A stretch of 64,000 nt of DNA from contig CANRPF010000005.1 of assembly GCA_947632375.1 (NCBI GenBank), forward strand, positions 1 through 64,000. The letters are read 5' to 3'. The position numbers and the translations under genes were made by a program. Below the pieces are notes generated by a model. It did no database searches and was not told where the DNA came from. It saw nothing but the letters and a program-made list of their open reading frames with translations. Positions 24,587 to 63,969 of this stretch are shown in pieces (position 1 is the first letter of the stretch; each line of letters starts with the position of its first letter). The stretch is from an uncultured Bacilli bacterium. GTDB lineage: Bacteria > Bacillota_I > Bacilli_A > RF39 > UBA660.

Positions 24587-24615
24587 ATTATATCATAAAT
24601 AATCACTATTGTCAA
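24587..24615 (-). promoter_or_regulatory. sigma70-like promoter of the tRNA/ncRNA operon
   Basis: TTGACA-17-TATAAT (minus), TGA extended -10. Confidence 0.82.
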
Positions 24616-27900: not shown

Positions 27901-27929
27901 ATAATATCATAATTATTTATCTTTGTCAA
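27901..27929 (-). promoter_or_regulatory. sigma70-like promoter
   Basis: TTGACA-17-TATTAT (minus). Confidence 0.75.
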
Positions 27930-34729: not shown

Positions 34730-34758
34730 ATGATAACATATAAATTTCAAAATGTCAA
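34730..34758 (-). promoter_or_regulatory. sigma70-like promoter
   Basis: TTGACA-17-TATCAT (minus). Confidence 0.75.
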
Positions 34759-40521: not shown

Positions 40522-41466
40522 TTATAACATATTTTCTCTTACGAGTTTACTATCATTATTTATCATAGTCTCTCTTATAACTTTATCACTTGTGTGTACG
40601 TATGTGTTTGTTGTAGTAACATTGTCATGTCCTAGAATATCTCTAACAACATTTAAAGGCGTACCATTGTTTGCCATTGCTGTTGCTCCTGCATGTCTTA
40701 TTTTATGTGCTGAAAAGTGTTGCCACCAATCTAATCTACCACTATACAAAGGACTTTCATTAAATCTTTTTGCATTGCTTTTTAAACACTCGTCAAAGTG
40801 TGTACTTTTTACTGGTAAACCATTTCTAGTTACAAATAATAAATTAGTATTTAAATTATTTCTTTCAACAACACCTTTTCTATAATTATTAATATACTTT
40901 TTTGCTATCTCAATTGTTAATGGACTGAAATCTATACGTCTTTCTTTATTTCCTTTACCAATAACATAAGCATAACCTCTTTCTATGTCGTCAGTTGTAA
41001 TCTGTATTAATTCACAAAATCTAACACAAGTGTTATACATAATCTGACACATTGCTTTTGTTCTTAAATTTCCAATAAAGGAAATGAAATCAATTGCGTC
41101 CTCTTCGTCTAAAAATTTTACTTTCCTTTTAGGTACTTTAGGTGGTACTATCTCAAAAATTTCTTCGTCTATAAGTTTTCTAATCTCTTTATTTTCTTTT
41201 CTTATATATTTAAAAACCTCTTTAATCTGTGCTAGTTTTACTTTTCTACTATTAGCACCATTTCCTTTATCTGTTAAATATTTAAGAAAATCTTCTATAT
41301 CTTTTGCCGTTACATTTATAATGTCTTCTTTTGTTTTTAAACCTTTATAGTCAGCAAACTCTTTAAATCTATCTACGTATTGTAACATAGATTTCTCTCC
41401 TCTACCTTCGATTTTTAACTTATATTCCACAAAATCATTAAGCACCTTATCAACATTATCTTTCAT
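40522..41466 (-). CDS. tyrosine recombinase (XerC/D-like)
   Basis: N-term SAM-like domain; YNTCVRFCEL, SAHKIRHAGATAMA, LGHDNVTTTNTYVH. Confidence 0.9.
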   Translation of the reverse strand: MKDNVDKVLNDFVEYKLKIEGRGEKSMLQYVDRFKEFADYKGLKTKEDIINVTAKDIEDFLKYLTDKGNGANSRKVKLAQIKEVFKYIRKENKEIRKLIDEEIFEIVPPKVPKRKVKFLDEEDAIDFISFIGNLRTKAMCQIMYNTCVRFCELIQITTDDIERGYAYVIGKGNKERRIDFSPLTIEIAKKYINNYRKGVVERNNLNTNLLFVTRNGLPVKSTHFDECLKSNAKRFNESPLYSGRLDWWQHFSAHKIRHAGATAMANNGTPLNVVRDILGHDNVTTTNTYVHTSDKVIRETMINNDSKLVRENML

Positions 41467-49015: not shown

Positions 49016-49240
49016 TTATATCTCTTTCATTATATTATTAATCTTTTGCTTATCTTTATTATCAATAAACTCATATAAACATTGACAATTAATAATATCT
49101 TTCATTTCTATTTTATTTCTAATTAATTCTCTATCTTCAAAATCATATAAATAATAGATATTATTTTTACTTTTTCTTAACTCAAATCTATCACAACTTG
49201 CTTTTGCTAAAATTCTATTGAAAAAATCTAAATTATTCAT
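49016..49240 (-). CDS. hypothetical protein
   Basis: ORF. Confidence 0.55.
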   Translation of the reverse strand: MNNLDFFNRILAKASCDRFELRKSKNNIYYLYDFEDRELIRNKIEMKDIINCQCLYEFIDNKDKQKINNIMKEI

Positions 49241-49761
49241 TCGTTATCACTACCAAACTCGTCTAAAAAGTATAATGTATTTGAGTTGCAAGTTTCTAAT
49301 AAATCTTGTGCTTTATCATAATAATCAAACTCTTCTCCACACTTTTCACTTAATCTTGATATTTCGTCTAGTGCTTTCATAAGTCCTTTTCCCATTAATT
49401 CATAACCATATTCTACATCTTTTATCTCTTTTCTGTCTGTTAATTCTAATTCTTCATAATACCAATTACCACTAATGGAATATTCAAACTCTCCAGTTTC
49501 TACATCTTGTACAGAATAATCATTATTAACATCTTTTCCTATAATAGTATTTGTTCCAAGTTCTTCGTCTTCTTCCACGAATAAATCTCCACTAGGAAAA
49601 GCATTTTCCCATACATAACTATAAATATCACTTATCATTTTTTCCATGTTCTCTATATCTTTTTTATGAACATATCTTAATTGTTCCTTTTCGTTTTTGT
49701 TTATATCTAATAAATATTCATAACACATTTTTAATTCTGCTAAAATCTTTTTATTACTCAT
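49237..49761 (-). CDS. hypothetical protein, paralogue of 48482..48997
   Basis: KKILAELKMCYEYLLDINKNEKEQL ... GNWYYEELEL. Confidence 0.65.
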   Translation of the reverse strand: MSNKKILAELKMCYEYLLDINKNEKEQLRYVHKKDIENMEKMISDIYSYVWENAFPSGDLFVEEDEELGTNTIIGKDVNNDYSVQDVETGEFEYSISGNWYYEELELTDRKEIKDVEYGYELMGKGLMKALDEISRLSEKCGEEFDYYDKAQDLLETCNSNTLYFLDEFGSDNE

Positions 49762-50084
49762 TTTCTATCTCTCCTTTCGTTTTCAATATTTATTTTTTCT
49801 AATACTATATAGAACATCTCTGTAAAATTTCCTATAAAATCATTAAATACTTGATAAACCTCTACTAAATTCTTATTCTGTTCCTTTAATACACGTTTAT
49901 CTCTATGTGGAATAACATACCACTCTTCGTTTTTTTCTTCTGCAAGTATTATATCATTAATATAATTAATCAAATATTCTTTTGCACTTTTCTTATCTTG
50001 ATATAAACCAATTATACGAGTATTTAATTGTTGTTTTTTCATATTCCTTACCTCGTCAATATAAGTTTCATATAATAAATACAT
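49758..50084 (-). CDS. hypothetical protein
   Basis: ORF. Confidence 0.55.
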   Translation of the reverse strand: MYLLYETYIDEVRNMKKQQLNTRIIGLYQDKKSAKEYLINYINDIILAEEKNEEWYVIPHRDKRVLKEQNKNLVEVYQVFNDFIGNFTEMFYIVLEKINIENERRDRK

Positions 50085-50116
50085 AATCTAATCTCCTTTT
50101 CTTTTTCTTTACACTT

Positions 50117-50160
50117 ATTATATCATATTACTTTTAATATATTCACTTTTTTTACACTTT
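50117..50160 (-). promoter_or_regulatory. class II promoter
   Basis: GTGTAAAAAAAGTGAATA-17-TATAAT (minus). Confidence 0.7.
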
Positions 50161-50163
50161 TTT

Positions 50164-50385
50164 TTATAAAATTTCATAATCTTCATTTAAGATACACTCA
50201 ATAATATATTTTTCACTTGGAAATAAACCTAGCCACTCTCCAATTTCTATTGTTTCTTCGTATTCTCCGTATCTTATAACTAATTTATTGCCAGTTTTGT
50301 TTTCAATGTCATAAGCAAAATCAAAACCTTTATTATCTTCATAAACTATAAAATCATTATTTTCAAATATTTTCTTTAATGTCAT
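50164..50385 (-). CDS. hypothetical protein
   Basis: ORF. Confidence 0.6.
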   Translation of the reverse strand: MTLKKIFENNDFIVYEDNKGFDFAYDIENKTGNKLVIRYGEYEETIEIGEWLGLFPSEKYIIECILNEDYEIL

Positions 50386-50387
50386 TA

Positions 50388-51044
50388 TTAAACACCTCTT
50401 TTATAATATTTATCTTCTACATATCTTTCAAGACAACTATAAATACCTTGTTCATTTGTATTATATTCACTAGCCTTAAAATCTTTTGCAATTTTAACAC
50501 AAAATTTGTATGCTAAATCGTTCTCACTAGGAAGAAAGTTTTTTAATAAATCTCTTAATACAAATATTATATAACTATCACTATCAAGAAGATATGTTTT
50601 TTCTTTTTCTAATTCTTCTAAAACATCTAATAGACTTTTCATTTCAATATTATAATCGTTTTCACTATAATCATGCTCTTTAGCCCATGTTCTTAAATTT
50701 ATAATTCTATCTTTAATAGTTTCTATATCATTTATATATAGATTATCTTCATAATAACCATAAGAATATATATCTACCTCTCCACTTATATACCACTCAT
50801 GCTCTTTATTGTCTGTATCAAAATTTTTGTCGTTTGCAAATAGTGTTATATTATAACCACTAGCATTAATAGGTATATAACCAGTCCAAAAATCTATGTC
50901 AACGTCTACACCACCACAACTGATGTCAAAATCTTCGTTATTAACAACCTCTTCAATACCACCTTTATTAAATAAATCTACTGCTTTTTTATAACCCTCG
51001 TAAGCAAGTTTATAATCAAAATAGTTTCTTCCTCTATTATTCAT
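50388..51044 (-). CDS. hypothetical protein
   Basis: 218-aa ORF. Confidence 0.6.
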   Translation of the reverse strand: MNNRGRNYFDYKLAYEGYKKAVDLFNKGGIEEVVNNEDFDISCGGVDVDIDFWTGYIPINASGYNITLFANDKNFDTDNKEHEWYISGEVDIYSYGYYEDNLYINDIETIKDRIINLRTWAKEHDYSENDYNIEMKSLLDVLEELEKEKTYLLDSDSYIIFVLRDLLKNFLPSENDLAYKFCVKIAKDFKASEYNTNEQGIYSCLERYVEDKYYKRGV

Positions 51045-51046
51045 AT

Positions 51047-51298
51047 TTAATCACTCTCCTTATTTATTTTTTTTCTTTTATTAATCTCTTTTTTGCTCCT
51101 AGCAAAATTTTTATTTTGTAATCTTTTTTTCTTTTTATATATTCTTGCATTTGCATTATGATGTTTTCTGCTTTCATTATTCTTTATTAAAAGCCTTTCA
51201 AGACACTCTATTATCTCTTCGTCTTTTTCTTTAGATTTAATTTTATACAATATCTCTCTATCTTTTTCATTTATATAAATATGTGCCATATTATACAC
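51047..51298 (-). CDS. hypothetical basic protein
   Basis: ORF. Confidence 0.5.
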   Translation of the reverse strand: MYNMAHIYINEKDREILYKIKSKEKDEEIIECLERLLIKNNESRKHHNANARIYKKKKRLQNKNFARSKKEINKRKKINKESD

Positions 51299-51779
51299 CC
51301 CTATTCTTCTTTAATCTTTCTTCTTCTTTTTCTAAACACTTTTCACAATAAGCACTTTCATAATCTTCTTTCTTTTCTCCACATATCATACAAAACCACT
51401 TGTTCTTTTCTTCTTGTTCTAAATTATCAAGAAAATCTCTAAAATTATCTAGCCAAACTTTCATACCTTTATCTGTATATTTTTTTGCAATAGTATAAAA
51501 ATCTTCAAGACTACTTATTAAACAATCTTCTCCTAGGTAATCGTCTATTTCATATTGCCACTCTGTTTTATAGTAATCTATTGCTCTACCTACTGCATGA
51601 CTGATAATTTCTTCAATTGTATCATTTTCCCATACATTTTCTTTTGTTTGCAAATCAAACAAATCAAATTTATCTCCATTTCTTACAACACACCACTCAT
51701 AGTAATTTAAAAACTCGTCTAAATACTTTAGTTTTTCGTCTTTTGTGATGTCATAAAAACTAACTACATCTTTTTTCAT
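51291..51779 (-). CDS. hypothetical protein, paralogue of 51783..52181, with zinc ribbon tail
   Basis: MKKDVVSFYDITKDEKLKYLDEF...; CMICGEKKEDYESAYCEKC. Confidence 0.65.
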   Translation of the reverse strand: MKKDVVSFYDITKDEKLKYLDEFLNYYEWCVVRNGDKFDLFDLQTKENVWENDTIEEIISHAVGRAIDYYKTEWQYEIDDYLGEDCLISSLEDFYTIAKKYTDKGMKVWLDNFRDFLDNLEQEEKNKWFCMICGEKKEDYESAYCEKCLEKEEERLKKNRGV

Positions 51780-51782
51780 ATT

Positions 51783-52181
51783 TTAAACCTCTTTCTTTAC
51801 TTTGTTTATTGACTTAATAAACTTACTTAATAAATCTCTAATCTCTTTATCTTCATTGATGTCTATATAACTATTTGCTATCTTATAAACATTTTTTGCA
51901 TTAATCACAAACTCTCTTTTCTCCCATTTATCTGCTAAATCAAGATAGTAATTAATTCCATAACCAATAGTATAATATAATATATATTGTCTAGTAAACC
52001 CTTTAATTATAGCATTTAAACTACAATTATTATATACATCTCCAGTCTGTAAATCTAATATTCTAAAAGTCCTATTCACACTCGGTTTTATTAAAAATTC
52101 CATTTCCTTAATAAACCTATCTAATACTTTTAATTTATTATCTTTAGTGAGACCATAAAGACTAACAATTCCTTTTTTCAT
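51783..52181 (-). CDS. hypothetical protein, paralogue of 51291..51779
   Basis: MKKGIVSLYGLTKDNKLKVLDRF... Confidence 0.65.
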   Translation of the reverse strand: MKKGIVSLYGLTKDNKLKVLDRFIKEMEFLIKPSVNRTFRILDLQTGDVYNNCSLNAIIKGFTRQYILYYTIGYGINYYLDLADKWEKREFVINAKNVYKIANSYIDINEDKEIRDLLSKFIKSINKVKKEV

Positions 52182-52183
52182 AT

Positions 52184-52573
52184 CTATTCTTCCCCCTCTT
52201 CGTCTAATTCCATATCAAACAATTGTTCTATGTCCTTATAACCTTTTGGTATTTTCTTTAATAATCTCAAACTACCATTAGAAACGTGTTGTCCAGTGTC
52301 TCCAAACATACCAGTAGTCCATATGATGTCAAAAGTGAAATAAATATATTCTTCTAACTCACATAATACTTTAATACCACTTTCTATGTTTCTATAATAT
52401 GTAAATGCGTCATTGAAAATATCTCTTTCAAATAAATCATAAATAACCTTACTTGCTAAATCACAATTGGTATAACAAACATAAAAATCGTTTATAATAT
52501 CGTTCCATTTTTCGTTTGCTAAATCTTGATATTTTTTTGCTCTCTTTTGCACCTCTTCTACCATAAATACCAC
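52184..52573 (-). CDS. hypothetical protein
   Basis: ORF. Confidence 0.6.
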   Translation of the reverse strand: MVFMVEEVQKRAKKYQDLANEKWNDIINDFYVCYTNCDLASKVIYDLFERDIFNDAFTYYRNIESGIKVLCELEEYIYFTFDIIWTTGMFGDTGQHVSNGSLRLLKKIPKGYKDIEQLFDMELDEEGEE

Positions 52574-52582
52574 CTCTTTCTT

Positions 52583-52771
52583 TTAATTATATAAATACCA
52601 CTCTTGTATTTTTAATACATCAAAATCTGCTTGTTTGATTTCTTCTTTTATAGTATATAGCATACTATCATTTACCTCTTCTTTATTGATAACCAACACC
52701 TCGTCTTTAAACATAAAGTATGCAATTACTTTTCCACTTTCATTAAACCATTTAAAACCTTTTCTTGTCAT
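52583..52771 (-). CDS. hypothetical protein
   Basis: ORF. Confidence 0.5.
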   Translation of the reverse strand: MTRKGFKWFNESGKVIAYFMFKDEVLVINKEEVNDSMLYTIKEEIKQADFDVLKIQEWYLYN

Positions 52772-52794
52772 TATTTACTCTCCTATTAAATCTT

Positions 52795-53073
52795 TTATAT
52801 CTCATACATTTTTAATAATATTTCTCTTGTGCTTAATTTGTCTAAAAAGTCTTCTTCCTCGTCTTCACAGAGGTAATATAATCTATCACTTAATTGTGAT
52901 ATACATAAATCGTTTTCGTCTGTTAAGTATAAGTCTTCTAAAAGTGGTATTAAATCATATGCTACCTCGTCATTAAAACCACTTGCTTTTAAACAAATAT
53001 ACTCATACAAATCGTCTATTGTGTCTTCTCCATATTCTTCTATAATTTCGTCTAAAACTTTCTTATCTTCCAT
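52795..53073 (-). CDS. hypothetical acidic protein
   Basis: ORF. Confidence 0.6.
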   Translation of the reverse strand: MEDKKVLDEIIEEYGEDTIDDLYEYICLKASGFNDEVAYDLIPLLEDLYLTDENDLCISQLSDRLYYLCEDEEEDFLDKLSTREILLKMYEI

Positions 53074-53074
53074 T

Positions 53075-53839
53075 TTATTCTCCTCCTCTTAAATAATCTT
53101 CTAAATCATAGCCCCATATATCACAAGCAAATTTTGCATGTTTTTCTTCTTCTTTAACACATTTACCATTTTCAAATATTGCTATTCCATGTCCTTTACA
53201 ACCAATATCTTCATTTGCATATGCTACCTCTACTCTAGCATTATATTTTTTACTTATTTTCTCAAATAACTCATAAGGCATGTTCCAAGCCGTTTCAAAC
53301 TCAACCTCATTATCATTTATATAACGTGTAGAACAAGCATTCCATTTTGTCCCCCAATTATTATTACACCAGTCATACCATGTATCTGCTCCATAGTCCA
53401 ATATATTTTTAATATAAATGTTTCCTAAATCTTCTAAATTATTAACACCTAAATCTATTAAACTACATGAACAAGTGAAATCAATTTTTCCAGTTTTCTT
53501 TTCTTTTTTTATTATTTCTTTTATTTTCTTTTGTGCTTTTTTATAATCTTCTTTACTGAAAATATTTTCATTTCCTAATTTTAATTCTTCAAAATAGCCA
53601 CCTCGATAAAAACTTTGTCCTATACTCTTTAATTTTTTAAAAAGATATTCCCTTTCTACATTATCAATTTTACTAACTGCATAATGTACAGAAATGTCTT
53701 CAAAACACTCACTTATATTAAGTGTTTTAGGCATTTTTATTATTTCATTAAAATCAAATAACTCTTCTTTGTCTTTATAGCAATCTTTCATAATTCTTTT
53801 ATCACTAAATTTTACAATATTTTTCACATAATTCGGCAT
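53075..53839 (-). CDS. Api92/YubB-like ferredoxin-fold protein (DUF1281-type)
   Basis: MPNYVKNIVKF...WYDWCNNNWGTKWNAC...FETAWNMPYELFEKIS. Confidence 0.75.
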   Translation of the reverse strand: MPNYVKNIVKFSDKRIMKDCYKDKEELFDFNEIIKMPKTLNISECFEDISVHYAVSKIDNVEREYLFKKLKSIGQSFYRGGYFEELKLGNENIFSKEDYKKAQKKIKEIIKKEKKTGKIDFTCSCSLIDLGVNNLEDLGNIYIKNILDYGADTWYDWCNNNWGTKWNACSTRYINDNEVEFETAWNMPYELFEKISKKYNARVEVAYANEDIGCKGHGIAIFENGKCVKEEEKHAKFACDIWGYDLEDYLRGGE

Positions 53840-53859
53840 AATTCATTTCTCCTCTCTTT

Positions 53860-54357
53860 TTAATATACAAACATTGGTAATAGATAACCTACCTCTCCAG
53901 TCTTTGTATTTTTGAATTTTATAACATATCTATAACCATAAGAAAATCTACTGCATAATTCAATTTTATCTGCTCTTATTAAATGTTTTATAGTGTCATA
54001 TTTTTTTAAATCAACACCATATTTTATAATCTCACTTTCTTCTTTTATATCTCCACTATATTCTTTTTTTAATTTAAAAACATTATCTTCGTTTATACAA
54101 TTATTTATATCTTCTGTAATATCTACAACATTAATAAGACTAAAACCTCTTGAAAAATCTTTATAAATATTTATAATTGTATCTTTAAGTTTATTGTTTT
54201 CTTCTTCTAAATAACCATAATCTTTATTTAAAAGAACAACTGAACAACAATTACTAATAATATATTTGCTTTCATATTCAAAACATTTATAGTATTGTAA
54301 ATCTTTATGTTCATTATGTACGTCTTTAAAAAACCTTTTTAAATATACCTTATTCAT
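53860..54357 (-). CDS. hypothetical protein, possible paralogue of 62164..62706
   Basis: YYKCFEYESKYIISNCCSVVLL. Confidence 0.6.
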   Translation of the reverse strand: MNKVYLKRFFKDVHNEHKDLQYYKCFEYESKYIISNCCSVVLLNKDYGYLEEENNKLKDTIINIYKDFSRGFSLINVVDITEDINNCINEDNVFKLKKEYSGDIKEESEIIKYGVDLKKYDTIKHLIRADKIELCSRFSYGYRYVIKFKNTKTGEVGYLLPMFVY

Positions 54358-54358
54358 T

Positions 54359-54907
54359 TTACCATACCACCTCTCCAGTTTCTAAATCTTCTAAACTAAA
54401 ACTATTACAACCACAACCAGTATGTACTCTTCTACCCTCTGCAAAACTATCTAAACCTTTTCTTGTTAATCTTTGGTATTTCCAACTTTTTCCACATTTA
54501 TCACAAGTTACTTTATACTTATAATGTATTTCTTGTTTAGGTGGAACAACATTTGCATTAATGTAAACCTTATCTATACTATTACATCTATCTATATGAT
54601 AACCTAATTTATTATTTACCATATTTGCATAATATCTCCACTTTCTATCATGTCCAGTTGTGTCTTCAAAAGTATGTAATATCTCATGAATAATAGTGTT
54701 CTTGATGTCTTTGTCCACACCAACCTCTAATAACCAACTCGATATGTTTATGTCTATCTTATTGACACATTGACCAAATCTTCTTTTAGCACGATAATTT
54801 ACCTTATAAGTAATATTATCTTTTAGTTTTTCTCCTAGTCCAATTTTAACAATTTCTTCTTCACTTTCCTTTGCAAGTCTCTTTAATTTCATTTCCAAAC
54901 TTTCCAT
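54359..54907 (-). CDS. SprT-like zinc metalloprotease
   Basis: IIHEILHTFEDTTGHDRKW (HExxH); zinc ribbon CDKCGKSWKYQR. Confidence 0.8.
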   Translation of the reverse strand: MESLEMKLKRLAKESEEEIVKIGLGEKLKDNITYKVNYRAKRRFGQCVNKIDINISSWLLEVGVDKDIKNTIIHEILHTFEDTTGHDRKWRYYANMVNNKLGYHIDRCNSIDKVYINANVVPPKQEIHYKYKVTCDKCGKSWKYQRLTRKGLDSFAEGRRVHTGCGCNSFSLEDLETGEVVW

Positions 54908-54940
54908 AAAATCTCTCCTTTTTCTTTTCTTTACACCCTA

Positions 54941-54994
54941 ATTATATCATACTTTATTTAAAATGTTCACTTTTTTTGCACTTTTTTTGAAAAA
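54941..54994 (-). promoter_or_regulatory. class II promoter
   Basis: AAAAAGTGCAAAAAAAGTGAACA-17-TATAAT (minus). Confidence 0.75.
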
Positions 54995-54997
54995 GTT

Positions 54998-55318
54998 TTA
55001 ATTATTATATCGTACTTTTGTTTGATTTTTCTCTTTCTTAAATTGTTCTAACTTGTTTTTGTAATATTCTATTTTTTCTTTATTATTTTTTCTTCTAGCC
55101 CAGTATAAGCCATTAGATAAATTATGATATTCTTTATTTTTCTTATTGTAATCTGCACTTTTTTTGTTTTGCTTTTGTTTGTCTTTTACAAATCTTTCTA
55201 TCATATTCAAATATTCAACTAAAATATCATGTTCTCCATTATTTTTATTTATTTTGCTATCTAATAAGTCTTTAACTTTAAACATTATTTGTAAATCTTT
55301 ATTTGTAATTAAAGCCAT
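54998..55318 (-). CDS. hypothetical basic protein
   Basis: ORF. Confidence 0.55.
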   Translation of the reverse strand: MALITNKDLQIMFKVKDLLDSKINKNNGEHDILVEYLNMIERFVKDKQKQNKKSADYNKKNKEYHNLSNGLYWARRKNNKEKIEYYKNKLEQFKKEKNQTKVRYNN

Positions 55319-55332
55319 ACATAAACACCCCC

Positions 55333-55800
55333 CTAATCTAAATCTAAAGATGTAAAGCCAAGTTTATCATTTTCTTTTTCTATTTCTTTTGATAATAACT
55401 CTTTGTAAACATTTCGTGTTTCTTTATCTAATATATAAATACCATTATCTAAATAATTTGTATAAAACTCAATGTCGTCTGTTGGAGATAAATCTTCTAA
55501 TTTACTAATATCATTAATAAGATATTTACTCTCCATTTCGTCAGTCTTATCAAAACCACAACAATTCTCTTTCGTTTGGAAATATAATAACTTTTCTTTC
55601 TTTTCTTCTATTTTATTTTTAATTATGTCTTGTATATGTCCTATGTAAACACAGAATATACCAGTTAAAATACTATTAAAACTCATATTTGAAACATCTG
55701 TAAATGTTCTTATATCTTCAAAATCATATTCACATTTTTCCAACATTTCCCAGTCTGCATAACCACCACCAAATAAAGAACATAAAATATCATATAACAT
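55333..55800 (-). CDS. hypothetical protein
   Basis: ORF. Confidence 0.6.
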   Translation of the reverse strand: MLYDILCSLFGGGYADWEMLEKCEYDFEDIRTFTDVSNMSFNSILTGIFCVYIGHIQDIIKNKIEEKKEKLLYFQTKENCCGFDKTDEMESKYLINDISKLEDLSPTDDIEFYTNYLDNGIYILDKETRNVYKELLSKEIEKENDKLGFTSLDLD

Positions 55801-55802
55801 TT

Positions 55803-56066
55803 TTATACCTCCTCTGTATAACCAAAACTTGCTATACTTTTCATATTAAATGATTTTAAAACAACATCATTTTCAACAATATATAGTCTTTTTCCACTTT
55901 CACTTAACTCGAACTTTTGTTTGCTATCTCTTAACCAGTAGTTAGTGTCTCCACTCATAGGACTTACCATAATCAAATATTTTAGTCCTCTAAAATCTCC
56001 AACATATGTAGGTCTATCACTTTCCATAAAATCTTTTACCCAATCTTTCTTTTCCATAAAAATCAC
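55803..56066 (-). CDS. hypothetical protein
   Basis: ORF. Confidence 0.6.
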   Translation of the reverse strand: MIFMEKKDWVKDFMESDRPTYVGDFRGLKYLIMVSPMSGDTNYWLRDSKQKFELSESGKRLYIVENDVVLKSFNMKSIASFGYTEEV

Positions 56067-56072
56067 TCTCCT

Positions 56073-56273
56073 TTAAAAGTTTTTGGAAATATAATGATTT
56101 GCATACCACTCTATTGTGCTATTCAAAACATCATTTAATTCACTATCTCCCATAACATTACTATAAATGTTTTCTGCAATTTCATTAATTTGTTCTTCTG
56201 TTAATTTACAATATTCTTCACACTCAACATTATTCAAATAATCACAAATCTCTTCTTTTATAAACTCTTCCAT
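56073..56273 (-). CDS. hypothetical protein
   Basis: ORF. Confidence 0.55.
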   Translation of the reverse strand: MEEFIKEEICDYLNNVECEEYCKLTEEQINEIAENIYSNVMGDSELNDVLNSTIEWYANHYISKNF

Positions 56274-56537
56274 TTATATTTTACCCTCTTGTACATCTAA
56301 TATATTATCTCTAAAAAAACTCTTTTGTTGTTTTCCTTTTTCAACTACCTCTAGGTAATCACTATTTGTAATATCTGCACCAGAAGAAACATCTATTTTA
56401 ATAATGTTTTTATTGAAAAACTCTATTTCTGCATATTTTTTAGTTATAAAACACTGCTCGTGATGTCTATTGTAAATTATTGCATTTTTATATAATCTTA
56501 TTTCTTTTACTTTATTATCTAACATTTTATTTTCCAC
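56274..56537 (-). CDS. hypothetical protein
   Basis: ORF. Confidence 0.55.
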   Translation of the reverse strand: MENKMLDNKVKEIRLYKNAIIYNRHHEQCFITKKYAEIEFFNKNIIKIDVSSGADITNSDYLEVVEKGKQQKSFFRDNILDVQEGKI

Positions 56538-56542
56538 CTTTC

Positions 56543-57073
56543 TTAATCTAACTCTATATAATCTCCGTTTTCGTCATAAATACTATGTCCATTAAAACTT
56601 AAATAATACCACTCTTCTCCCTCTAAACCACAATTATTGCATTTATAAGGATAATAAATCATATCGTCTGCTATTTCCATAACATCATAATCTAAATCTT
56701 CATGTCTACATTTAGGACAAACACCCTTTTCATTTAAAAGTTTTTCTTCAAATTTCCAGTTATTAATTTCCATAATATTTTTCATATCTTTTATAATGTT
56801 TTCTACAAGTTTTATATTCTTTTCATTTTCTCCAAATTTTTCTTTATAATAATAACTACCATAAACATTATAATCTTTTCTTATATAATCATATTTAATA
56901 GTATAATCTTCATTTTCTAAAGTTATTATCATATCAGTAAAAGCAATTTCTATTCTTTTACTTTCTCCACTACCTACAAACTTAACATTTGAAAAAACCA
57001 ATGTATTGTCTTCAAAAGTTGCTATCTCGTTATATAGTGGACTATACTTTTCTATAATCTTTTCCATTTTCAT
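56543..57073 (-). CDS. zinc-ribbon protein
   Basis: CPKCRHEDLDYDV...YKCNNCGLEGEEW. Confidence 0.65.
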   Translation of the reverse strand: MKMEKIIEKYSPLYNEIATFEDNTLVFSNVKFVGSGESKRIEIAFTDMIITLENEDYTIKYDYIRKDYNVYGSYYYKEKFGENEKNIKLVENIIKDMKNIMEINNWKFEEKLLNEKGVCPKCRHEDLDYDVMEIADDMIYYPYKCNNCGLEGEEWYYLSFNGHSIYDENGDYIELD

Positions 57074-57095
57074 AAATAATCACTCTCCCTTTTAA

Positions 57096-57761
57096 TTAAT
57101 AACTATAAAATACTATTTTTCCACTTTCTAATTGATAATAATCTTCACTTTCTAACAAATCATAACCAAAAGCATAATCGTCAAAATAATCTTGTTCTTC
57201 ATAACCATAAGCCCATTTTTCATTTTCTATCATATCGTCAAAATCTTTGAATACACAACCTACAATAGCCCTATCTTGATAATCTTGTCCATAGTTGTCA
57301 AAAATATCGTCAACCTCTATCTCACTTAAACCATATTCTTTTGCTACATATTCTTTTTCTTCTTCTATAATCTTATTAAACAAATCTTTGTTCTCTTTAC
57401 TTAATAATCTCTTTTCAATAGTGTTTTCATATTCATTAATAATTTCTATACCTCTTTTATATTTATCACTATCTTTTTCTATTCCAAAACCTAGTGCTTT
57501 TATCTCGTCTTGTAATTCAAATAACTTTTTAAAGTCTTCTTTAGTTAGAATAGTTTCTAAATTATCATAATTTTCTTCTACTAACTTTCTAAACTCTTTT
57601 TCAAAACCACTAAAACAAGCACCCACAATATGTAGACCACTAAAATAATGTCCACACTCAAAACCTTTAAATTCCATATATTTAACACAATCTCTGTCTT
57701 CACTATTTTTCTCTTTTGCTAAAAATAATACTTTTTCCATAATATCTCCTCCTTTTTTCAT
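57096..57761 (-). CDS. hypothetical protein, paralogue of 58446..59051
   Basis: MEKVLFLAKEKNSEDRDCVKYMEFK...LLSKENKDLF...EEEKEYVAKEYGLSEIEVDDI. Confidence 0.65.
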   Translation of the reverse strand: MKKGGDIMEKVLFLAKEKNSEDRDCVKYMEFKGFECGHYFSGLHIVGACFSGFEKEFRKLVEENYDNLETILTKEDFKKLFELQDEIKALGFGIEKDSDKYKRGIEIINEYENTIEKRLLSKENKDLFNKIIEEEKEYVAKEYGLSEIEVDDIFDNYGQDYQDRAIVGCVFKDFDDMIENEKWAYGYEEQDYFDDYAFGYDLLESEDYYQLESGKIVFYSY

Positions 57762-57772
57762 TTTACACTCAT

Positions 57773-57817
57773 ATTATAACATATAAAAGTACAAATGTTC
57801 ACTTTTTTTACACTTTA
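57773..57817 (-). promoter_or_regulatory. class II promoter
   Basis: AAGTGTAAAAAAAGTGAACA-17-TATAAT (minus). Confidence 0.75.
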
Positions 57818-57830
57818 TTTTGATTTTTTT

Positions 57831-58058
57831 TTAAATGTCTTCTTGATAATCATAATTTTTATGAACAAATAAAGGTGTATCATTATAATATAACATCTTA
57901 TAACCAACTCTTAATAAATAAGCCATATTATCATAGTTTATCAAGTTATTATCGTCTTCCAAATAATACTCGTACTTATGTTCCATATTGTAATTTACTG
58001 CTTTTTGTATATTGTCTTTATCTTGTAAATTTATTTCTATTACCTTTTTTCTTTTCAT
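57831..58058 (-). CDS. hypothetical protein
   Basis: ORF. Confidence 0.55.
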   Translation of the reverse strand: MKRKKVIEINLQDKDNIQKAVNYNMEHKYEYYLEDDNNLINYDNMAYLLRVGYKMLYYNDTPLFVHKNYDYQEDI

Positions 58059-58387
58059 TTTAACATCTCCATTTCTACTATATACATATCATTTCCATAA
58101 TCAGTTTCAAAACTACCAATTTCATAGTTGCAATCTAGTACATCAATCTCTGTGCCGTACATATCATATAAAACAACATTATCAAAATAATTACTACAAC
58201 CACTACATAAATCTATTGTTAGATAATTTCCATTAGAAAATTCTACACAACCAATTTCAATATAATCATATATTTTTGCCCCTAGTTTTTCCATTTCCTT
58301 TTTATCTGTGTTAAAATCTAAATCTAGCAACTTTTTATAATACTCATAATCTTCTTTTGAAATACTAAACTTTCCTTTATAAATCAT
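58055..58387 (-). CDS. hypothetical protein
   Basis: ORF. Confidence 0.6.
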   Translation of the reverse strand: MIYKGKFSISKEDYEYYKKLLDLDFNTDKKEMEKLGAKIYDYIEIGCVEFSNGNYLTIDLCSGCSNYFDNVVLYDMYGTEIDVLDCNYEIGSFETDYGNDMYIVEMEMLK

Positions 58388-58445
58388 ATTTTACACCTCT
58401 TCTTTTCCTTTCATACCTATATAACACCTATATAAATTTTTGTAC

Positions 58446-59051
58446 CTAGTCTAAATATTCCACTATTCTACCACTTGGTAGTTTATACCACAAATTATAG
58501 TTACCAATAGTTTTTAGTAATAATTCATTGCCAAAATTTTTATAGTTAAAAAATTCCATAGGTACGTTGTCATACCCGTAAAGTTCCCTTGTATGCTCTA
58601 CCATATCATATAAATTATTATAAACACAACTTACCATATTTCTATCTTTACATTTTAGTTTATAGTTTTTCCATATTTCTTCTGTATCACTATCAGTCAA
58701 ATTGTATTTCTTTTTTATATAGACCTTTTCTTCTTCTTGTATCTCTTCATATAGTTTCTTATTCTCTTCACTCAATAACTTATCTGTAATTATCTTTTCT
58801 ATGTCGTTATAAATACCCTTTTTCTTATCTTTCACGTTATATATTTTATAAAATATCTCAAACTCTTCTTGTGTTAGAACACTTTTAATATCTTCATATT
58901 TATTGTTTACATAATCTCTTAAAGTATTACTAACACCTAGAACATTTTCACATAAAATGTCTTTATTTTTAAAATCTAGGTAAAAAATCACGTTCCTTTT
59001 ATCTAAATTTTCAATTTTTGCCAAAAACACTATATCTTCCATATTTTTCAC
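58446..59051 (-). CDS. hypothetical protein, paralogue of 57096..57761
   Basis: MEDIVFLAKIENLDKRNVIFYLDFK...LLSEENKKLYEEIQEEEKVYIKKKYNLTDSDTEEI. Confidence 0.65.
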   Translation of the reverse strand: MKNMEDIVFLAKIENLDKRNVIFYLDFKNKDILCENVLGVSNTLRDYVNNKYEDIKSVLTQEEFEIFYKIYNVKDKKKGIYNDIEKIITDKLLSEENKKLYEEIQEEEKVYIKKKYNLTDSDTEEIWKNYKLKCKDRNMVSCVYNNLYDMVEHTRELYGYDNVPMEFFNYKNFGNELLLKTIGNYNLWYKLPSGRIVEYLD

Positions 59052-59058
59052 TCTCCTT

Positions 59059-59250
59059 TTATTCCATAGTTTCTATTTTACAATTTGCAACTTGATAGTG
59101 TCCACTTTCCATGAAATCACACATATAATCACTAGCCTTATCTTTAGTTAAGTTATTCTTCACACTAATTATATCTTTTTTTAATAAATTATCACTATCG
59201 GCACCTTTTTTAAATACTATAAATCTGTATTTCTTTTCCATAAAAATCAC
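59059..59250 (-). CDS. hypothetical protein
   Basis: ORF. Confidence 0.55.
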   Translation of the reverse strand: MIFMEKKYRFIVFKKGADSDNLLKKDIISVKNNLTKDKASDYMCDFMESGHYQVANCKIETME

Positions 59251-59260
59251 TCTCCTTTTC

Positions 59261-59452
59261 TTATTTAATACTTTCTACAATATCTGTAAATATATCTGCT
59301 ATCAAACATCTGTTCTGTTCATATTCCTTTTCTATTTTCCTACTTTTTTCATATTCTAGCCACTCTATTTTGTCTTCTAAATACTCTGTATAATCTTCTA
59401 ATTCAAAAATATAATCAATTAATTCTCCTCTAGTCATATCAAAATAGCCCAT
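59261..59452 (-). CDS. hypothetical protein
   Basis: ORF. Confidence 0.55.
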   Translation of the reverse strand: MGYFDMTRGELIDYIFELEDYTEYLEDKIEWLEYEKSRKIEKEYEQNRCLIADIFTDIVESIK

Positions 59453-59469
59453 AGAAACATCTCCTTTAT

Positions 59470-59688
59470 TTACTTTATTTTATTGTATTCTTCATACATT
59501 TGTTTCATAAAGTCCTTGTACCACTTATCATTTTTAAAATATCTATCACAACCAGTTGCTATCTCGTCTTCATTTACAATTATTCTTACACATCTGTTTT
59601 TTTCTGCATTATTAATATCTAAACCTATCATAAATACTACTATTCCTATAATTACTATTCCCACACTTATAATAACTTTCTTATACAT
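59470..59688 (-). CDS. small membrane protein
   Basis: TM VIISVGIVIIGIVVFMIGL. Confidence 0.55.
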   Translation of the reverse strand: MYKKVIISVGIVIIGIVVFMIGLDINNAEKNRCVRIIVNEDEIATGCDRYFKNDKWYKDFMKQMYEEYNKIK

Positions 59689-60058
59689 AAATATCTCCCT
59701 TTTCTATACCAAATACTAATTTTTCTAACTCTTCAAAATCTAGTGTATCTATATCATAAAACTCTTCTAAATTAGATATAGTAATATCTCCACTTAATTT
59801 TACTACCTCTCTTCTGTTATTTGTACTTATAGTTAATAACATATCATTATAGTAAAAGTCAAAATAACCCAAGTCCAAATCAACATTTGTAAAACTTATT
59901 GAAACATTGTCTTCTGCCATTTTTTCAATGTACTTATACACCTTTTCAATGTCATGCGTATCTCCAAAATCAATACTTAATTTTCTCTCTAATTGTCTGT
60001 AATCAACATATGCTTTTTTTAAAATTTTCATATCTTTATCATTATATTTCTTTTCCAT
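59681..60058 (-). CDS. hypothetical protein
   Basis: ORF. Confidence 0.6.
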   Translation of the reverse strand: MEKKYNDKDMKILKKAYVDYRQLERKLSIDFGDTHDIEKVYKYIEKMAEDNVSISFTNVDLDLGYFDFYYNDMLLTISTNNRREVVKLSGDITISNLEEFYDIDTLDFEELEKLVFGIEKGDIYV

Positions 60059-60077
60059 AATAATCTCTCCTTTTTAA

Positions 60078-60617
60078 TTATTTATTCCATTTTACAATAG
60101 CAAATATTCCATTATAATTATAAATTGCATATCTACCACTCAATCTCTTTATAACATTATTTCCACAATCATAATCATAAATCTCAAAATTTTCTCCACT
60201 CATAGTTGTAATAAATTTCAAGCATGGTATTTTAACGTCTTCATTTATAATATATACATAATTAGTTCCGTCTCCTATACCATTAGGTATACATATTGTA
60301 AAGTCTTTATTACCTACTTTTAAACTGCCTATATCACTATATGTTTCAATACGTTCATGTTCCTTTTTATTCAAGTAGTTTATAACTAATCTTGTGTCTT
60401 CTTTAAATAATTCCCAGTAGCCTTGATTGTTTTCTAGTCTCAAATCATTTTTTACCAATTCTTTAAACTCTGTTATTGTTTTAGCATTTAACCAATACTC
60501 TTTTATAATCTCAATACTACCTTTATAATCGTATATACTTTCATTTAATAAACATCTTTTTGTAAACTCGTCTATCTTTTTTGTCTTTTCAAAATTTTCC
60601 CATTTCATATACAACAT
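60078..60617 (-). CDS. hypothetical protein
   Basis: ORF. Confidence 0.6.
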   Translation of the reverse strand: MLYMKWENFEKTKKIDEFTKRCLLNESIYDYKGSIEIIKEYWLNAKTITEFKELVKNDLRLENNQGYWELFKEDTRLVINYLNKKEHERIETYSDIGSLKVGNKDFTICIPNGIGDGTNYVYIINEDVKIPCLKFITTMSGENFEIYDYDCGNNVIKRLSGRYAIYNYNGIFAIVKWNK

Positions 60618-60624
60618 CTCCTAT

Positions 60625-60849
60625 CTATTCATAATCTTTTAATAAAATCTTGTCTACGTCTTCATTATCTAACTTTTCAAGCATTACCTCAACTAAACCA
60701 GTCAAATTAAGATAAATTTTTTCTTTACTTTCATAATTTGATATTCTTAATACATCAACATCTACAAATTCAATAGTTTTGCTATTATCAACTAATCTTT
60801 CAAATAATTCTATTTTTTCCATTTCTATCACTCTCCTATTCCTAATCAA
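60625..60849 (-). CDS. hypothetical protein
   Basis: ORF. Confidence 0.55.
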   Translation of the reverse strand: MIRNRRVIEMEKIELFERLVDNSKTIEFVDVDVLRISNYESKEKIYLNLTGLVEVMLEKLDNEDVDKILLKDYE

Positions 60850-61210
60850 AATCTCTATTTCTTATAGTTTCTTTTAATATCTTTATTTCTTTACCAAAAT
60901 CAGTTTCATAAAACTCGTCAACTACCTTTTGTCTTTTACCTTTTCCAAATCTGCTTATTCCATGTTCTCTTTTATAATTTTCTACATATCTGCAAATCTC
61001 ATTATATTCTAACTTTTCTACAACACAACTCATGCAAGTCTCGTACGTATAACTTTCCCACGTTCTATTATAATATCTGCAAGTATTACTTTCCAATTCT
61101 ACACCATTTTTTAATAAAGTAGTTTTATGTCCCCAAGCACGTGTATTTTCCCAATACTCGTTTACAAAATTGTAAACATTATCATTAATTTTTTTAACTC
61201 TTATTTCCAT
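60842..61210 (-). CDS. hypothetical protein
   Basis: ORF. Confidence 0.6.
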   Translation of the reverse strand: MEIRVKKINDNVYNFVNEYWENTRAWGHKTTLLKNGVELESNTCRYYNRTWESYTYETCMSCVVEKLEYNEICRYVENYKREHGISRFGKGKRQKVVDEFYETDFGKEIKILKETIRNRDFD

Positions 61211-61244
61211 ATTAACCTCTCCTTTTTTTTTAATTTACATTTAT

Positions 61245-61282
61245 ATTATAACATATAAATTTTAAAATGTTCACTTTTTATT
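61245..61282 (-). promoter_or_regulatory. class II promoter
   Basis: AAAAAGTGAACA-17-TATAAT (minus). Confidence 0.7.
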
Positions 61283-61859
61283 CAAAATATTCAATTTTTT
61301 CTAAACACTTTTCTCCATAATCAATTTTTTCTTGAATATTCATTTTTTCTAACTTTTCATATTCACTTTCAGTTAACCCTACTATAAGAGTGCTATGTCC
61401 AGTTGGAACATCATGGTGGCTTTCTCTTAAATATAGATATTTTCCATTTTTACTGCTACCCTTAACATACATAGTGCAATCATAACCTCTGTAAAAGCAA
61501 TCAACATATTTATCAGTTATTTTAGCACCACTTGCACCAGTCCACGTTGCATTAAATAATACAATTAAATAGTGTTCATAATCTTTCATTAAACTATTAA
61601 ATACGTCTTCTATCTCCAACTCGTCTGTATAGTCATATTCTACATTTTCAAGACTTTTAATACAACTGCTATTTTCCAATTCATAAGCACTAACTGAAAC
61701 ATAATCTACATCTAACTCACTTTCAAAATCTGCAAGTTGTTTATCTGCAAGTCCTTTATCAATGTTTTCTATTGGTACATTATAGTAAACACCTACTTGT
61801 TGCAAGTCCATATTTTTAATATAATTTCTGTCAAAACTTTTCTCTACATAAGTTTTCAT
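61278..61859 (-). CDS. hypothetical protein
   Basis: 193-aa ORF. Confidence 0.65.
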   Translation of the reverse strand: MKTYVEKSFDRNYIKNMDLQQVGVYYNVPIENIDKGLADKQLADFESELDVDYVSVSAYELENSSCIKSLENVEYDYTDELEIEDVFNSLMKDYEHYLIVLFNATWTGASGAKITDKYVDCFYRGYDCTMYVKGSSKNGKYLYLRESHHDVPTGHSTLIVGLTESEYEKLEKMNIQEKIDYGEKCLEKIEYFE

Positions 61860-61946
61860 AAATAAACACCTTTCCTTTCAATTTACACTTATAGTATAAC
61901 ACCATATCAAGTTATTATATAAAATTTTTAATCTGTATGAAGAGGA

Positions 61947-62174
61947 CTAAAAATCTTCTTCATACAAACCTTTCAAACTCTTATATGTATCTCTTAAAAT
62001 CTCATGTGCCTTGTCTGTACCTATTTTTAAATACATACTATAATATAATTCTTCTATTATGTCCCTTAATTGTGCATTGTCCAATTTACAACTAATGTTG
62101 TAAATTGTATCCATAAAATCATAATCATTTACCATACAACTTTCCATTTCTTCTAAAAATTCCTTATTTTCCAT
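61947..62174 (-). CDS. hypothetical protein
   Basis: ORF. Confidence 0.55.
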   Translation of the reverse strand: MENKEFLEEMESCMVNDYDFMDTIYNISCKLDNAQLRDIIEELYYSMYLKIGTDKAHEILRDTYKSLKGLYEEDF

Positions 62175-62706
62175 TTAAAATACCCTCCTCTATTAATCTT
62201 GGTCTTCTTATTATTCTTATTATACTTTTAATTGGTAAATAAGCAATACCATTTTTTCCAATAAACATATAACAATAAGTTTCAAAATCTTTTTGTAGTA
62301 AAATTACGTTTGTTATGTCTATTATATCTTTTATTATTTTAATCTGTTTCTTTTCTCTGTCTTGTTCAAAAAACAAGTTGTCTATAATAAAGCCTTTTCT
62401 CTTTAAAATATCTTCTTTTTCTTTTTCAACTAATTTTATTTCCTTGTAATCTTTTAAAAAGTTTCTAAAGCCATGTTTTAGTGCTTTCTCGTCTTGTTCT
62501 TCTAACTTTTCCATGTTTTCTGTTTTTTCTTTTAATAAAAGCATAGAATAACCATTACTTATTAAAAATTTATTTTCTACATCTGCATATTTATTTTTAT
62601 AACTATTCAAACCAGTTTTAAAATACTTTTCTAACATATCATTTTCTCCTTTATTTATTTCCATTATATTTTCACTTTCCTTTCTTTTACTTTCCATATA
62701 TTCCAT
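62164..62706 (-). CDS. hypothetical protein, possible paralogue of 53860..54357
   Basis: KNKYADVENKFLISNGYSMLLL; exact start uncertain. Confidence 0.55.
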   Translation of the reverse strand: MEYMESKRKESENIMEINKGENDMLEKYFKTGLNSYKNKYADVENKFLISNGYSMLLLKEKTENMEKLEEQDEKALKHGFRNFLKDYKEIKLVEKEKEDILKRKGFIIDNLFFEQDREKKQIKIIKDIIDITNVILLQKDFETYCYMFIGKNGIAYLPIKSIIRIIRRPRLIEEGILNGK

Positions 62707-62912
62707 ATTTTATTTACTTTCCATGTTTTTCTCAATTTTTTTCCATGTTATGTTATTTTTTTCTGTTTTATTATTTTCACTTTCTTAACCTTAATTAAGG
62801 AAAGAAAAGCCCAACACCTCAAATACCCAACCACCAACCATTTTTTTATATTTACTTATTCGTCTTCGTCTATAATTTCTCCGTCTTCATTAAGTCCTAG
62901 ACTTTTATACCT

Positions 62913-63119
62913 TTATAGAATATTATTATTTTCTAGGACTTGTTTTACCTCTCCTAATATCATAAAGTTTCCAAAACTACCATTATTTATTTTATATTCA
63001 AGTAGTAACTCTAAAGTCTCCAAGTCTGCCCTACTGCAATTTACACCACTTATTCTAACCATATTATATTCGTTTTCTTCTATTGCTTTTTGTACTTTCT
63101 TTAATAACTTATTTTCCAT
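62913..63119 (-). CDS. hypothetical protein (possible readthrough, see findings)
   Basis: ORF with RBS; coding-like frame continues past TAA. Confidence 0.55.
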   Translation of the reverse strand: MENKLLKKVQKAIEENEYNMVRISGVNCSRADLETLELLLEYKINNGSFGNFMILGEVKQVLENNNIL

Positions 63120-63152
63120 ATCTAATCTCTCCTTTTTCTTTTATATACACTT

Positions 63153-63190
63153 ATTATATCATATCTTTTTAAAAATGTTCACTTTTTTTA
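63153..63190 (-). promoter_or_regulatory. class II promoter
   Basis: GTAAAAAAAGTGAACA-17-TATAAT (minus). Confidence 0.75.
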
Positions 63191-63198
63191 CATCTTTT

Positions 63199-63402
63199 TT
63201 ATTTTTTTGTATCTGTAATAAACATTTTCATTTTATATAACTCTATACCCAAATCGTCTAGTTTTTTATAATATTCTTTTACATCTACACCTAATTTCTC
63301 AAGAGTATGTAGTGCAATTTCTATATTTACAAACTCTTCGTCCATTTTTTTAACACTCTTATAAATATTTCTCAACTCTTCTTTTTTTTGTTTCTCAAAC
63401 AT
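63199..63402 (-). CDS. hypothetical protein
   Basis: ORF. Confidence 0.55.
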   Translation of the reverse strand: MFEKQKKEELRNIYKSVKKMDEEFVNIEIALHTLEKLGVDVKEYYKKLDDLGIELYKMKMFITDTKK

Positions 63403-63438
63403 AATCTTTTCTCTCCTTTTTTTTAATTTTACGTCTCC

Positions 63439-63485
63439 ATTATATCACACAATTTTTAAAATGTTCACTTTTTTAGCACTTTTTC
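63439..63485 (-). promoter_or_regulatory. class II promoter
   Basis: AAAAAGTGCTAAAAAAGTGAACA-17-TATAAT (minus). Confidence 0.75.
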
Positions 63486-63539
63486 TGCATTTTTTTTAAA
63501 AAATTGTTTTTTTTAGTAGACGTTCCTTTATATATAATA

Positions 63540-63655
63540 CCCACAAAACATAGTTTTGCATTTAATACACGTTCCGTGTATGTATATACACGCCCACAAA
63601 CTTTTAAGTTGCATTTATACATTATAATTTCCCACAAAAGTTTAAATTGCATTTA
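63540..63655. repeat. three copies of a 25-bp repeat CCCACAAA-N10-TGCATTTA
   Basis: 63540-63564, 63593-63617, 63631-63655; no gap in alignment. Confidence 0.8.
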
Positions 63656-63827
63656 TATGGTACATACTACATTATACCATGTTTTGTAAGTTTACATATA
63701 CGAAACTCAAACTTATGTTTTATCGAACGTATATTCTATGATACATCTGTTCAATTTTTACCAAGTTTACTAATTGTAAATATTTCTTTTTTCTCTTCCT
63801 CCTCCTCTTTTTTAATTTTACACCTAT

Positions 63828-63876
63828 ATTATACCACTTAAAAATTAAAATGTTCACTTTTTTAGCACTTTTTTTA
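63828..63876 (-). promoter_or_regulatory. class II promoter
   Basis: AAAAAGTGCTAAAAAAGTGAACA-17-TATAAT (minus). Confidence 0.75.
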
Positions 63877-63940
63877 ATTTTTTTTGAAAGTGTAAAAAAG
63901 TGTAAAGTACAAAAGTTTTTTAGGAAATTTTAAAAAAAAT

Positions 63941-63969
63941 GTTGTATTTTGTCGTGAAAGTGGTATAAT
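63941..63969 (+). promoter_or_regulatory. rightward extended -10 promoter
   Basis: GTTGTA-17-TATAAT with TGG extension; GTGTAAA elements upstream. Confidence 0.55.

What the first reader, a model, noticed from the sequence alone, without database searches (positions are those of the whole stretch)
50117..63876. Second promoter class with AAAAAGTG[CT]WAAAAAAGTGAACATTTT upstream element
Seven minus-strand sites (-10 starts at 50117, 54941, 57773, 61245, 63153, 63439, 63828) each have TATAAT with TGN extension, exactly 17 bp to TGAACA/TGAATA instead of TTGACA, most with a second AAAAGTG[CT]A repeat upstream, and often GTGTAAA near the expected start site. All lie directly upstream of a gene block in the 50-64 kb region; left of 40 kb the promoters are ordinary TTGACW-17-TATAAT. 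Suggests a separate regulon with a dedicated activator or repressor binding the GTG(T/C)AAAAAAAGTGAAC repeats.
Basis: seen in the sequence. Interest (0 to 1): 0.75.

Follow-up and report, generated by a model that had tools for sequence, protein, structure and literature searches.

The report
Phage promoter class with private -35 box
A large gut-bacterium phage drives its block of small genes from seven near-identical promoters in which the usual -35 signal is replaced by a phage-specific box, and two related phages have the same promoter set with a different box each, which points to a phage-made regulator that changes together with its own sites.

Summary
AAAAGTGAAYA-N14-TGN-TATAAT occurs exactly seven times, all minus strand, all intergenic. 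It is absent from the rest of the 2.07-Mb assembly and from 394 other genomes of the class; searches of IMG/VR and GTDB gave only isolated single matches. Flanks are unrelated and the core is about 93% identical, so these are not recent duplications.

Relatives gave the key evidence. G642 (133 kb) and G638 (109 kb) carry the syntenic gene block with the same promoter layout but their own boxes: AGTG[AC]AATAT (10 sites) and TAGGCATAT (5 sites). The box offset from the -10 is identical at all 22 sites. Orthologous promoters, for example before the SprT-like gene in all three phages, have switched box together with their genome. Five orthologous ordinary promoters kept TTGAC[AT]. In C5 and G642 the class also carries a start-site TGTAAA element and a near-perfect extended -10.

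Best reading: host sigma-A RNA polymerase reads the extended -10, and a phage-encoded regulator docks where the -35 should be. I favour an activator (T4 middle-promoter logic); an SPbeta-type repressor operator is a close second. No regulator gene was identified. Most boxes still contain a 3-4/6 match to TTGACA (17 or 18 bp spacer), so weak sigma contact is not excluded.

The parts
50108..50156 (-). class II promoter P50117 (box -46..-26 at 50136-50156, -10 at 50117-50122, start-site GTGTAAA 50108-50114), before 49758-50084
   Evidence: ortholog in G642 at 13643
54930..54980 (-). class II promoter P54941 (box 54960-54980, -10 54941-54946, GTGTAAA 54930-54936), before the SprT-like gene 54359-54907
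   Evidence: orthologous class II promoters with other boxes in G642 (16654) and G638 (100651)
57762..57812 (-). class II promoter P57773 (box 57792-57812, -10 57773-57778, GTGTAAA 57762-57768), before 57096-57761
61234..61284 (-). class II promoter P61245 (box 61264-61284, -10 61245-61250, ATGTAAA 61234-61240); upstream repeat weak; box overlaps the end of gene 61278-61859
63144..63192 (-). class II promoter P63153 (box 63172-63192, -10 63153-63158, GTGTATA 63144-63150), before 62913-63119
63428..63478 (-). class II promoter P63439 (box 63458-63478, -10 63439-63444, start element ACGTAAA 63428-63434), before 63199-63402
   Evidence: ortholog in G642 at 27059
63817..63867 (-). class II promoter P63828 (box 63847-63867, -10 63828-63833, GTGTAAA 63817-63823); drives a leader without a clear gene, at the divergent junction with the rightward gene 64325-64927
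   Evidence: ortholog in G642 at 27407
49016..63402 (-). block of about 36 small mostly ORFan genes served by the class II promoters (SprT-like 54359-54907; DUF1281_C domain protein 53075-53839)
   Evidence: syntenic in G642
4003..4031 (+). ordinary (class I) promoter TTGACT-N14-TGA-TATTAT before the DNA polymerase III alpha gene; TTGACT kept at the orthologous G642 94773
24587..24615 (-). class I promoter TTGACA...TGATATAAT before the tRNA-Trp/tRNA-Ala region; TTGACA kept at G642 118883
27901..27929 (-). class I promoter TTGACA...TGATATTAT; TTGACA kept at G642 123924
34730..34758 (-). class I promoter TTGACATTTT...TGTTATCAT, next best match to the class II matrix (score 21 against 46-54)
63887..63969 (+). 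divergent side of the regulatory region: two GTGTAAA copies (63890, 63900) and a TGGTATAAT promoter-like site (63961) facing the rightward gene 64325-64927
40522..41466 (-). XerD-like tyrosine recombinase with all catalytic residues in C5, G642 and G638

Best explanation
These are promoters read by the host sigma-A RNA polymerase through a near-perfect extended -10 (TGN-TATAAT). The -35 contact is taken over by a phage-encoded DNA-binding regulator bound at about -46 to -26. Most likely it is an activator that docks beside or on sigma region 4, in the way T4 MotA does at middle promoters, and so switches on the 49-63 kb block as one regulon, apart from the replication, tRNA and metabolism genes that use TTGACA promoters. 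Shown from sequence: the promoter class, its exclusive use in one block, the fixed geometry, and the phage-specific, jointly changed box. Inferred: that a phage protein reads the box (my estimate about 0.8, either sign) and that it activates rather than represses.
For: (1) 7 sites, 0 expected, none elsewhere in the assembly or in 394 genomes of the class. (2) Core -42..-26 is 93% identical between sites while -95..-56 is at background (0.39 against 0.37). (3) G642: 10 sites with AGTG[AC]AATAT (one T variant); G638: 5 sites with TAGGCAYAT; the box sits at the same offset from the -10 at all 22 sites. (4) Box identity within phages 0.94/0.92/0.86, between phages 0.21-0.63, and only 0.42-0.58 at orthologous promoters; spacer and flanks show no such difference; label permutation p < 5e-5. 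(5) Five orthologous class I promoters keep TTGAC[AT]. (6) In C5 and G642 class II promoters have a perfect -10 in 16/17 against 6/21 class I (Fisher 4e-5), and TGTA at the start site in 14/17 against 1/21 (9e-7). (7) The box almost never occurs away from a -10. (8) T4 middle promoters show the same logic: a box in place of the -35 at fixed distance, and a stringent -10 (PMC2988021).
Against: No HTH, sigma, MotA-like or other regulator gene was recognised in C5 or in the non-orthologous genes of G642 (those tables list only the 25 best families). The boxes keep 4/6 matches to TTGACA at 17 bp (C5, six of seven sites) or at 18 bp (G638, all five), and 3-4/6 at 18 bp in G642, so weak sigma contact remains possible. 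A repressor operator laid over the -35 would give most of the same pattern. The -10 compensation does not hold in G638 (2/5 perfect). If the block is immediate-early, a newly made activator would come too late.
Confidence: 0.45

Rival explanations
1. Repressor operator: the box is the immunity operator of a temperate phage laid over the -35 of each early promoter, like SPbeta SPBRE bound by MrpR or the L5-type operators; the box differs between phages because immunity specificities diverge.
For: Rapid, genome-wide concerted change of the box fits repressor-operator co-evolution. SPbeta, a comparable large Firmicutes phage, has such an element over its promoters, and the same offset-word method found it again. 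A recombinase with full catalytic residues suggests a temperate life. More distant phages with a SprT gene carry phage-specific signatures over intact TTGACA promoters, one with a palindrome in the spacer (L078).
Against: Almost no copies away from promoters, and exact spacing to the -10 at 22/22 sites. The -35 departs from consensus in all three phages, whereas SPbeta, L078 and L084 keep a near-consensus -35. No repressor gene was recognised, and the tyrosine recombinase is not a dead MrpR-type one.
Confidence: 0.33
2. Host polymerase alone: very strong early promoters with extended -10, A-tract UP element for alpha-CTD and a tolerated non-consensus -35; the shared sequence is optimisation for host RNA polymerase.
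For: Phased A-tracts upstream of -36 in C5; 3-4/6 matches to TTGACA at 17 or 18 bp; T4 early promoters are optimised UP/-35/TGn/-10 promoters; strong extended -10.
Against: Does not explain invariant G at -45, -36 and -34, nor why the box changes as a set between related phages while TTGACA promoters in the same genomes stay. G638 has a different, GC-containing core.
Confidence: 0.12
3. A phage-encoded or host alternative sigma factor, or a sigma region-4 modifier, with a different -35 specificity reads the box.
For: A box at -35 with a constant -10 is what a changed region 4 would read.
Against: No sigma-family match in the families listed for C5 or G642. A perfect sigma-A -10 with TGN is kept. 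A host sigma would give host promoters of this kind, and none is found in the assembly.
Confidence: 0.06
4. Chance or recent duplication of one promoter.
For: P63439 and P63828 are 82% alike over 88 nt.
Against: Flanks at background identity; orthologous sites in relatives; 0 expected by chance.
Confidence: 0.01

Closest known systems
Bacteriophage T4 middle promoters (MotA box, MotA/AsiA sigma appropriation)
   Same: Near-consensus sigma -10, often with TGn; -35 replaced by a phage box at fixed distance from the -10; separate from TTGACA-like promoters of the same phage.
   Different: Box sequence unrelated to WWWTGCTTtA; no MotA or AsiA found; the box differs in each related phage; an added start-site TGTAAA element; timing unknown.
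SPbeta repeated element (SPBRE) and MrpR/YopR
   Same: Large Firmicutes phage; a repeated conserved element laid over several promoters of small genes; found by the same offset-word method.
   Different: SPBRE fills the -35 to -10 spacer with a near-consensus -35 (TAGACA); MrpR has lost catalytic residues whereas the recombinase here keeps them; box position and sequence differ.
Cluster A mycobacteriophage operators/stoperators
   Same: Phage-specific site sets that differ between related phages.
   Different: Stoperators lie throughout the genome and mostly away from promoters; here nearly every copy sits at a -10 with exact spacing.
T4 early promoters (UP/-35/TGn/-10)
   Same: A-rich upstream region, TGn extended -10.
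   Different: No consensus -35; a sequence-specific box replaces it.

Membership tests
T4-type middle promoter / sigma appropriation | near-consensus sigma -10 | tested here: met
   TATAAT 7/7 in C5, 9/10 in G642, 2/5 in G638
T4-type middle promoter / sigma appropriation | phage box in place of the -35 at fixed distance from the -10 | tested here: met
   same offset at 22/22 sites in three phages; residual 3-4/6 match to TTGACA noted
T4-type middle promoter / sigma appropriation | MotA box consensus WWWTGCTTtA | tested here: not met
   boxes are AGTGAACATTTT, AGTG[AC]AATAT and TAGGCATAT; consensus from PMC2988021
T4-type middle promoter / sigma appropriation | MotA and AsiA encoded | tested here: inconclusive
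   none among the families listed for C5 and G642; tables cut at 25 families
T4-type middle promoter / sigma appropriation | activation after early proteins are made | not testable with these tools
   needs infection time course
SPBRE/MrpR repressor system | repeated element laid over several promoters | tested here: met
SPBRE/MrpR repressor system | SPBRE sequence and position in the -35/-10 spacer | tested here: not met
   SPBRE is CAAATACAAAWAATATGTATA in the spacer; here the spacer is variable
SPBRE/MrpR repressor system | repressor that is a catalytically dead tyrosine recombinase | tested here: not met
   the recombinase found keeps R149, K171, H254, R257, H280, Y289 in all three phages
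host-only UP/-35/TGn/-10 early promoter | consensus -35 | tested here: not met
   at 17 bp the hexamer matches TTGACA at 3-4/6 (C5), 2/6 (G642), 1/6 (G638); at 18 bp 3-4/6 in all
alternative sigma factor regulon | sigma-family gene in the phage | tested here: inconclusive
   no match among the families listed

The most novel reading that the evidence does not exclude
A lineage of large Firmicutes phages has its own sigma-appropriation-like switch: a phage factor of unknown family replaces -35 recognition at all promoters of the small-gene block, and factor and sites diverge together so that each phage has a private promoter code.
Probability: 0.35. Interest if true: 0.75.

Novelty: new variant of a known kind. 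Interest (0 to 1): 0.58.

Why it matters
Regulatory codes of large phages of gut and other uncultured Firmicutes are mostly unknown. Here three related phages show a natural box-swap series on the same set of genes, which turns the question of who reads the box into a short candidate list and a simple reporter test. If an activator, it would be a MotA-like solution outside T4-type phages; if a repressor, it would define the immunity system of this group.

Tried and rejected
No near DNA relatives in the phage collection. Distant relatives (LIBA6276, TR-TP2, MT835556, IMG/VR G316 and G317) lack any repeated element at a fixed offset from the -10 (LIBA6276 and TR-TP2 were read in part only). IMG/VR and GTDB pattern hits outside the relatives are single and judged chance. 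The candidate basic protein 51047-51298 was folded as a possible ribbon-helix-helix regulator: long helices only, no support. The recombinase 40522-41466 as an MrpR-type repressor: rejected, catalytic residues intact. UP-element reading: the C5 A-tract lies about 4 bp nearer the start than the E. coli proximal subsite (from memory), and G638 lacks the element. PhoB-like 11-bp direct repeat (from memory of PhoB): fits C5 (5/7) but is about 10 bp in G642 and unclear in G638. The gene 64325-64927, beside the divergent regulatory region, is a candidate regulator by position only; it lies outside the window, so it was not folded.

Full report
What the window is. The window is bases 1-64000 of a 66,117-bp contig (C5) in a draft assembly with 9% estimated contamination, so the host is uncertain. 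It is a fragment of a large phage: primase-helicase, DNA polymerase III alpha, anaerobic ribonucleotide reductase, RecD2 and a XerD-like recombinase. The left 18 kb read rightward; 19-63.4 kb read leftward, and the last part is a run of small, mostly ORFan genes.

The observation. All seven promoters are present as described. AAAAGTGAAYA-N14-TGNTATAAT has 7 hits against 0 in shuffles, all intergenic; the box alone occurs only at these promoters. A matrix made from the seven separates them (46-54 bits) from the next site (21 bits, a TTGACA hybrid at 34730) and from everything else (below 5). An unbiased count of 8-mers at fixed offsets upstream of 106 TGN -10-like sites brings the same box out on top. 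Outside this contig it is missing from the assembly, from 394 other genomes of the class and, apart from isolated hits, from IMG/VR and 84,980 GTDB genomes.

Not duplication. Mean pairwise identity is 0.93 in -42..-26 and 0.93 in -15..-7, but 0.39 in -95..-56 (null 0.37) and 0.53 in the spacer (null 0.43). The core has been kept while the surroundings drifted.

Two classes. Class I (TTGAC[AT]-N14-TGN-TANNNT) has eight promoter-like sites in C5, serving the polymerase gene, the tRNA region and other genes; class II serves only the 49-63 kb block. In C5 and G642 together, class II has perfect TATAAT in 16/17 against 6/21 for class I, and a TGTA start-site element in 14/17 against 1/21. The -10 figure is partly affected by how sites were first found; by box alone it is 6/6 in C5 and 9/10 in G642.

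Relatives. Searches with the primase-helicase and the SprT-like protein found IMG/VR contigs G642 (132,932 bp) and G638 (108,674 bp). Gene order of the leftward block is conserved. G642 has ten class II promoters with AGTG[AC]AATAT (one T variant) and, as in C5, TGTAAA at the start; G638 has five with TAGGCAYAT. The box is at the same offset from the -10 at all 22 sites. Box identity is 0.86-0.94 within a phage but only 0.42-0.58 between orthologous promoters; spacer and flank show no such difference within and between phages. Five orthologous class I promoters (polC; 18998/107932; tRNA region; 27929/123924; recombinase 41525/6598) keep TTGAC[AT]. Sites that change together across a genome while others stay are what a co-evolving, phage-encoded binding protein leaves behind.

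Mechanism. Host sigma-A most likely reads the extended -10. A phage regulator occupying -46..-26 either replaces the -35 contact (activator, preferred) or blocks it (repressor). For activation: exact spacing everywhere, almost no free-standing boxes, degenerate -35, near-perfect -10 in C5 and G642; the T4 middle promoters work this way (PMC2988021). For repression: SPbeta SPBRE/MrpR is a well-studied case in a large Firmicutes phage (PMC10516654), and the offset-word method found SPBRE at the top in SPbeta; phage-specific site sets are also typical of immunity systems (PMC6550527); several more distant phages with the SprT gene have phage-specific sequences over intact TTGACA promoters. A weak point for both: at 17 or 18 bp spacing the boxes still match TTGACA at 3-4 of 6 positions, so host-only recognition cannot be ruled out.

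What was not found. No recognisable regulator: Pfam and PHROG scans of C5 and of the non-orthologous G642 proteins list no HTH, sigma or MotA-like family among the 25 best. The recombinase is catalytically complete in all three phages, so it is not an MrpR-type dead recombinase. Position suggests the rightward gene 64325-64927 (basic, 48% identical in G642), which faces P63828 across the regulatory region; this is a lead only.

Verdict. A real, phage-specific promoter class, confirmed and extended to two relatives with different boxes; a new variant of known phage promoter-switching strategies, with an unidentified regulator.

Noticed in passing
window 39982-, 63655-, 63617-, 63564-; G642 4786-, 4933-, 19332-, 23506-, 25517-, 27183-, 27216-: Dispersed 25-nt element TAAATG-N12-TTGTGGG, 4 copies in C5 and 7 in G642 (0-0.1 expected), all on the transcribed minus strand; read in frame it begins micro-ORFs of the form M-x4-L-W. 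Function unknown.
   Followed up: partly
window 63445-63830: Leader without a clear gene downstream of P63828 with three copies of that element; the same arrangement is conserved in G642 27030-27405.
   Followed up: partly
window 33414-37508: Five paralogous proteins starting with a TFETNSSSTHS motif, with homologs in G642 and G638.
   Followed up: no
window 10949-14201: Anaerobic ribonucleotide reductase gene in pieces (four members match NRDD) with HNH genes at 13242-13667 and 14315-14839, suggesting introns; Rfam gave no match at gathering score.
   Followed up: no
window 50164-63402 (member not resolved): One protein of the set A2 (the block plus two rightward genes) matches the RNA polymerase ADP-ribosylase family phrog_832 weakly (E 0.0014), a possible host takeover factor.
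   Followed up: no
window 1-24428 (+ strand set, member not resolved): One protein matches the Acb2/Tad1 hairpin domain (E 2.5e-11), a possible anti-defence sponge.
   Followed up: no
L078, L079, L081, L084: Other large phages with a SprT-like gene have 9-18 TTGAC[AT] promoter-like sites per 20 kb, each phage with its own signature over them; L078 has a palindrome CCACCTAATAGGTGG in the spacer, L084 has AAAAGTG before TTGACA.
   Followed up: partly
window about 61882-61920: A promoter-like site (TGT-TATACT) with the GTGTAAA start element but without the class II box.
   Followed up: no
[quoted passage not shown]
   Followed up: no
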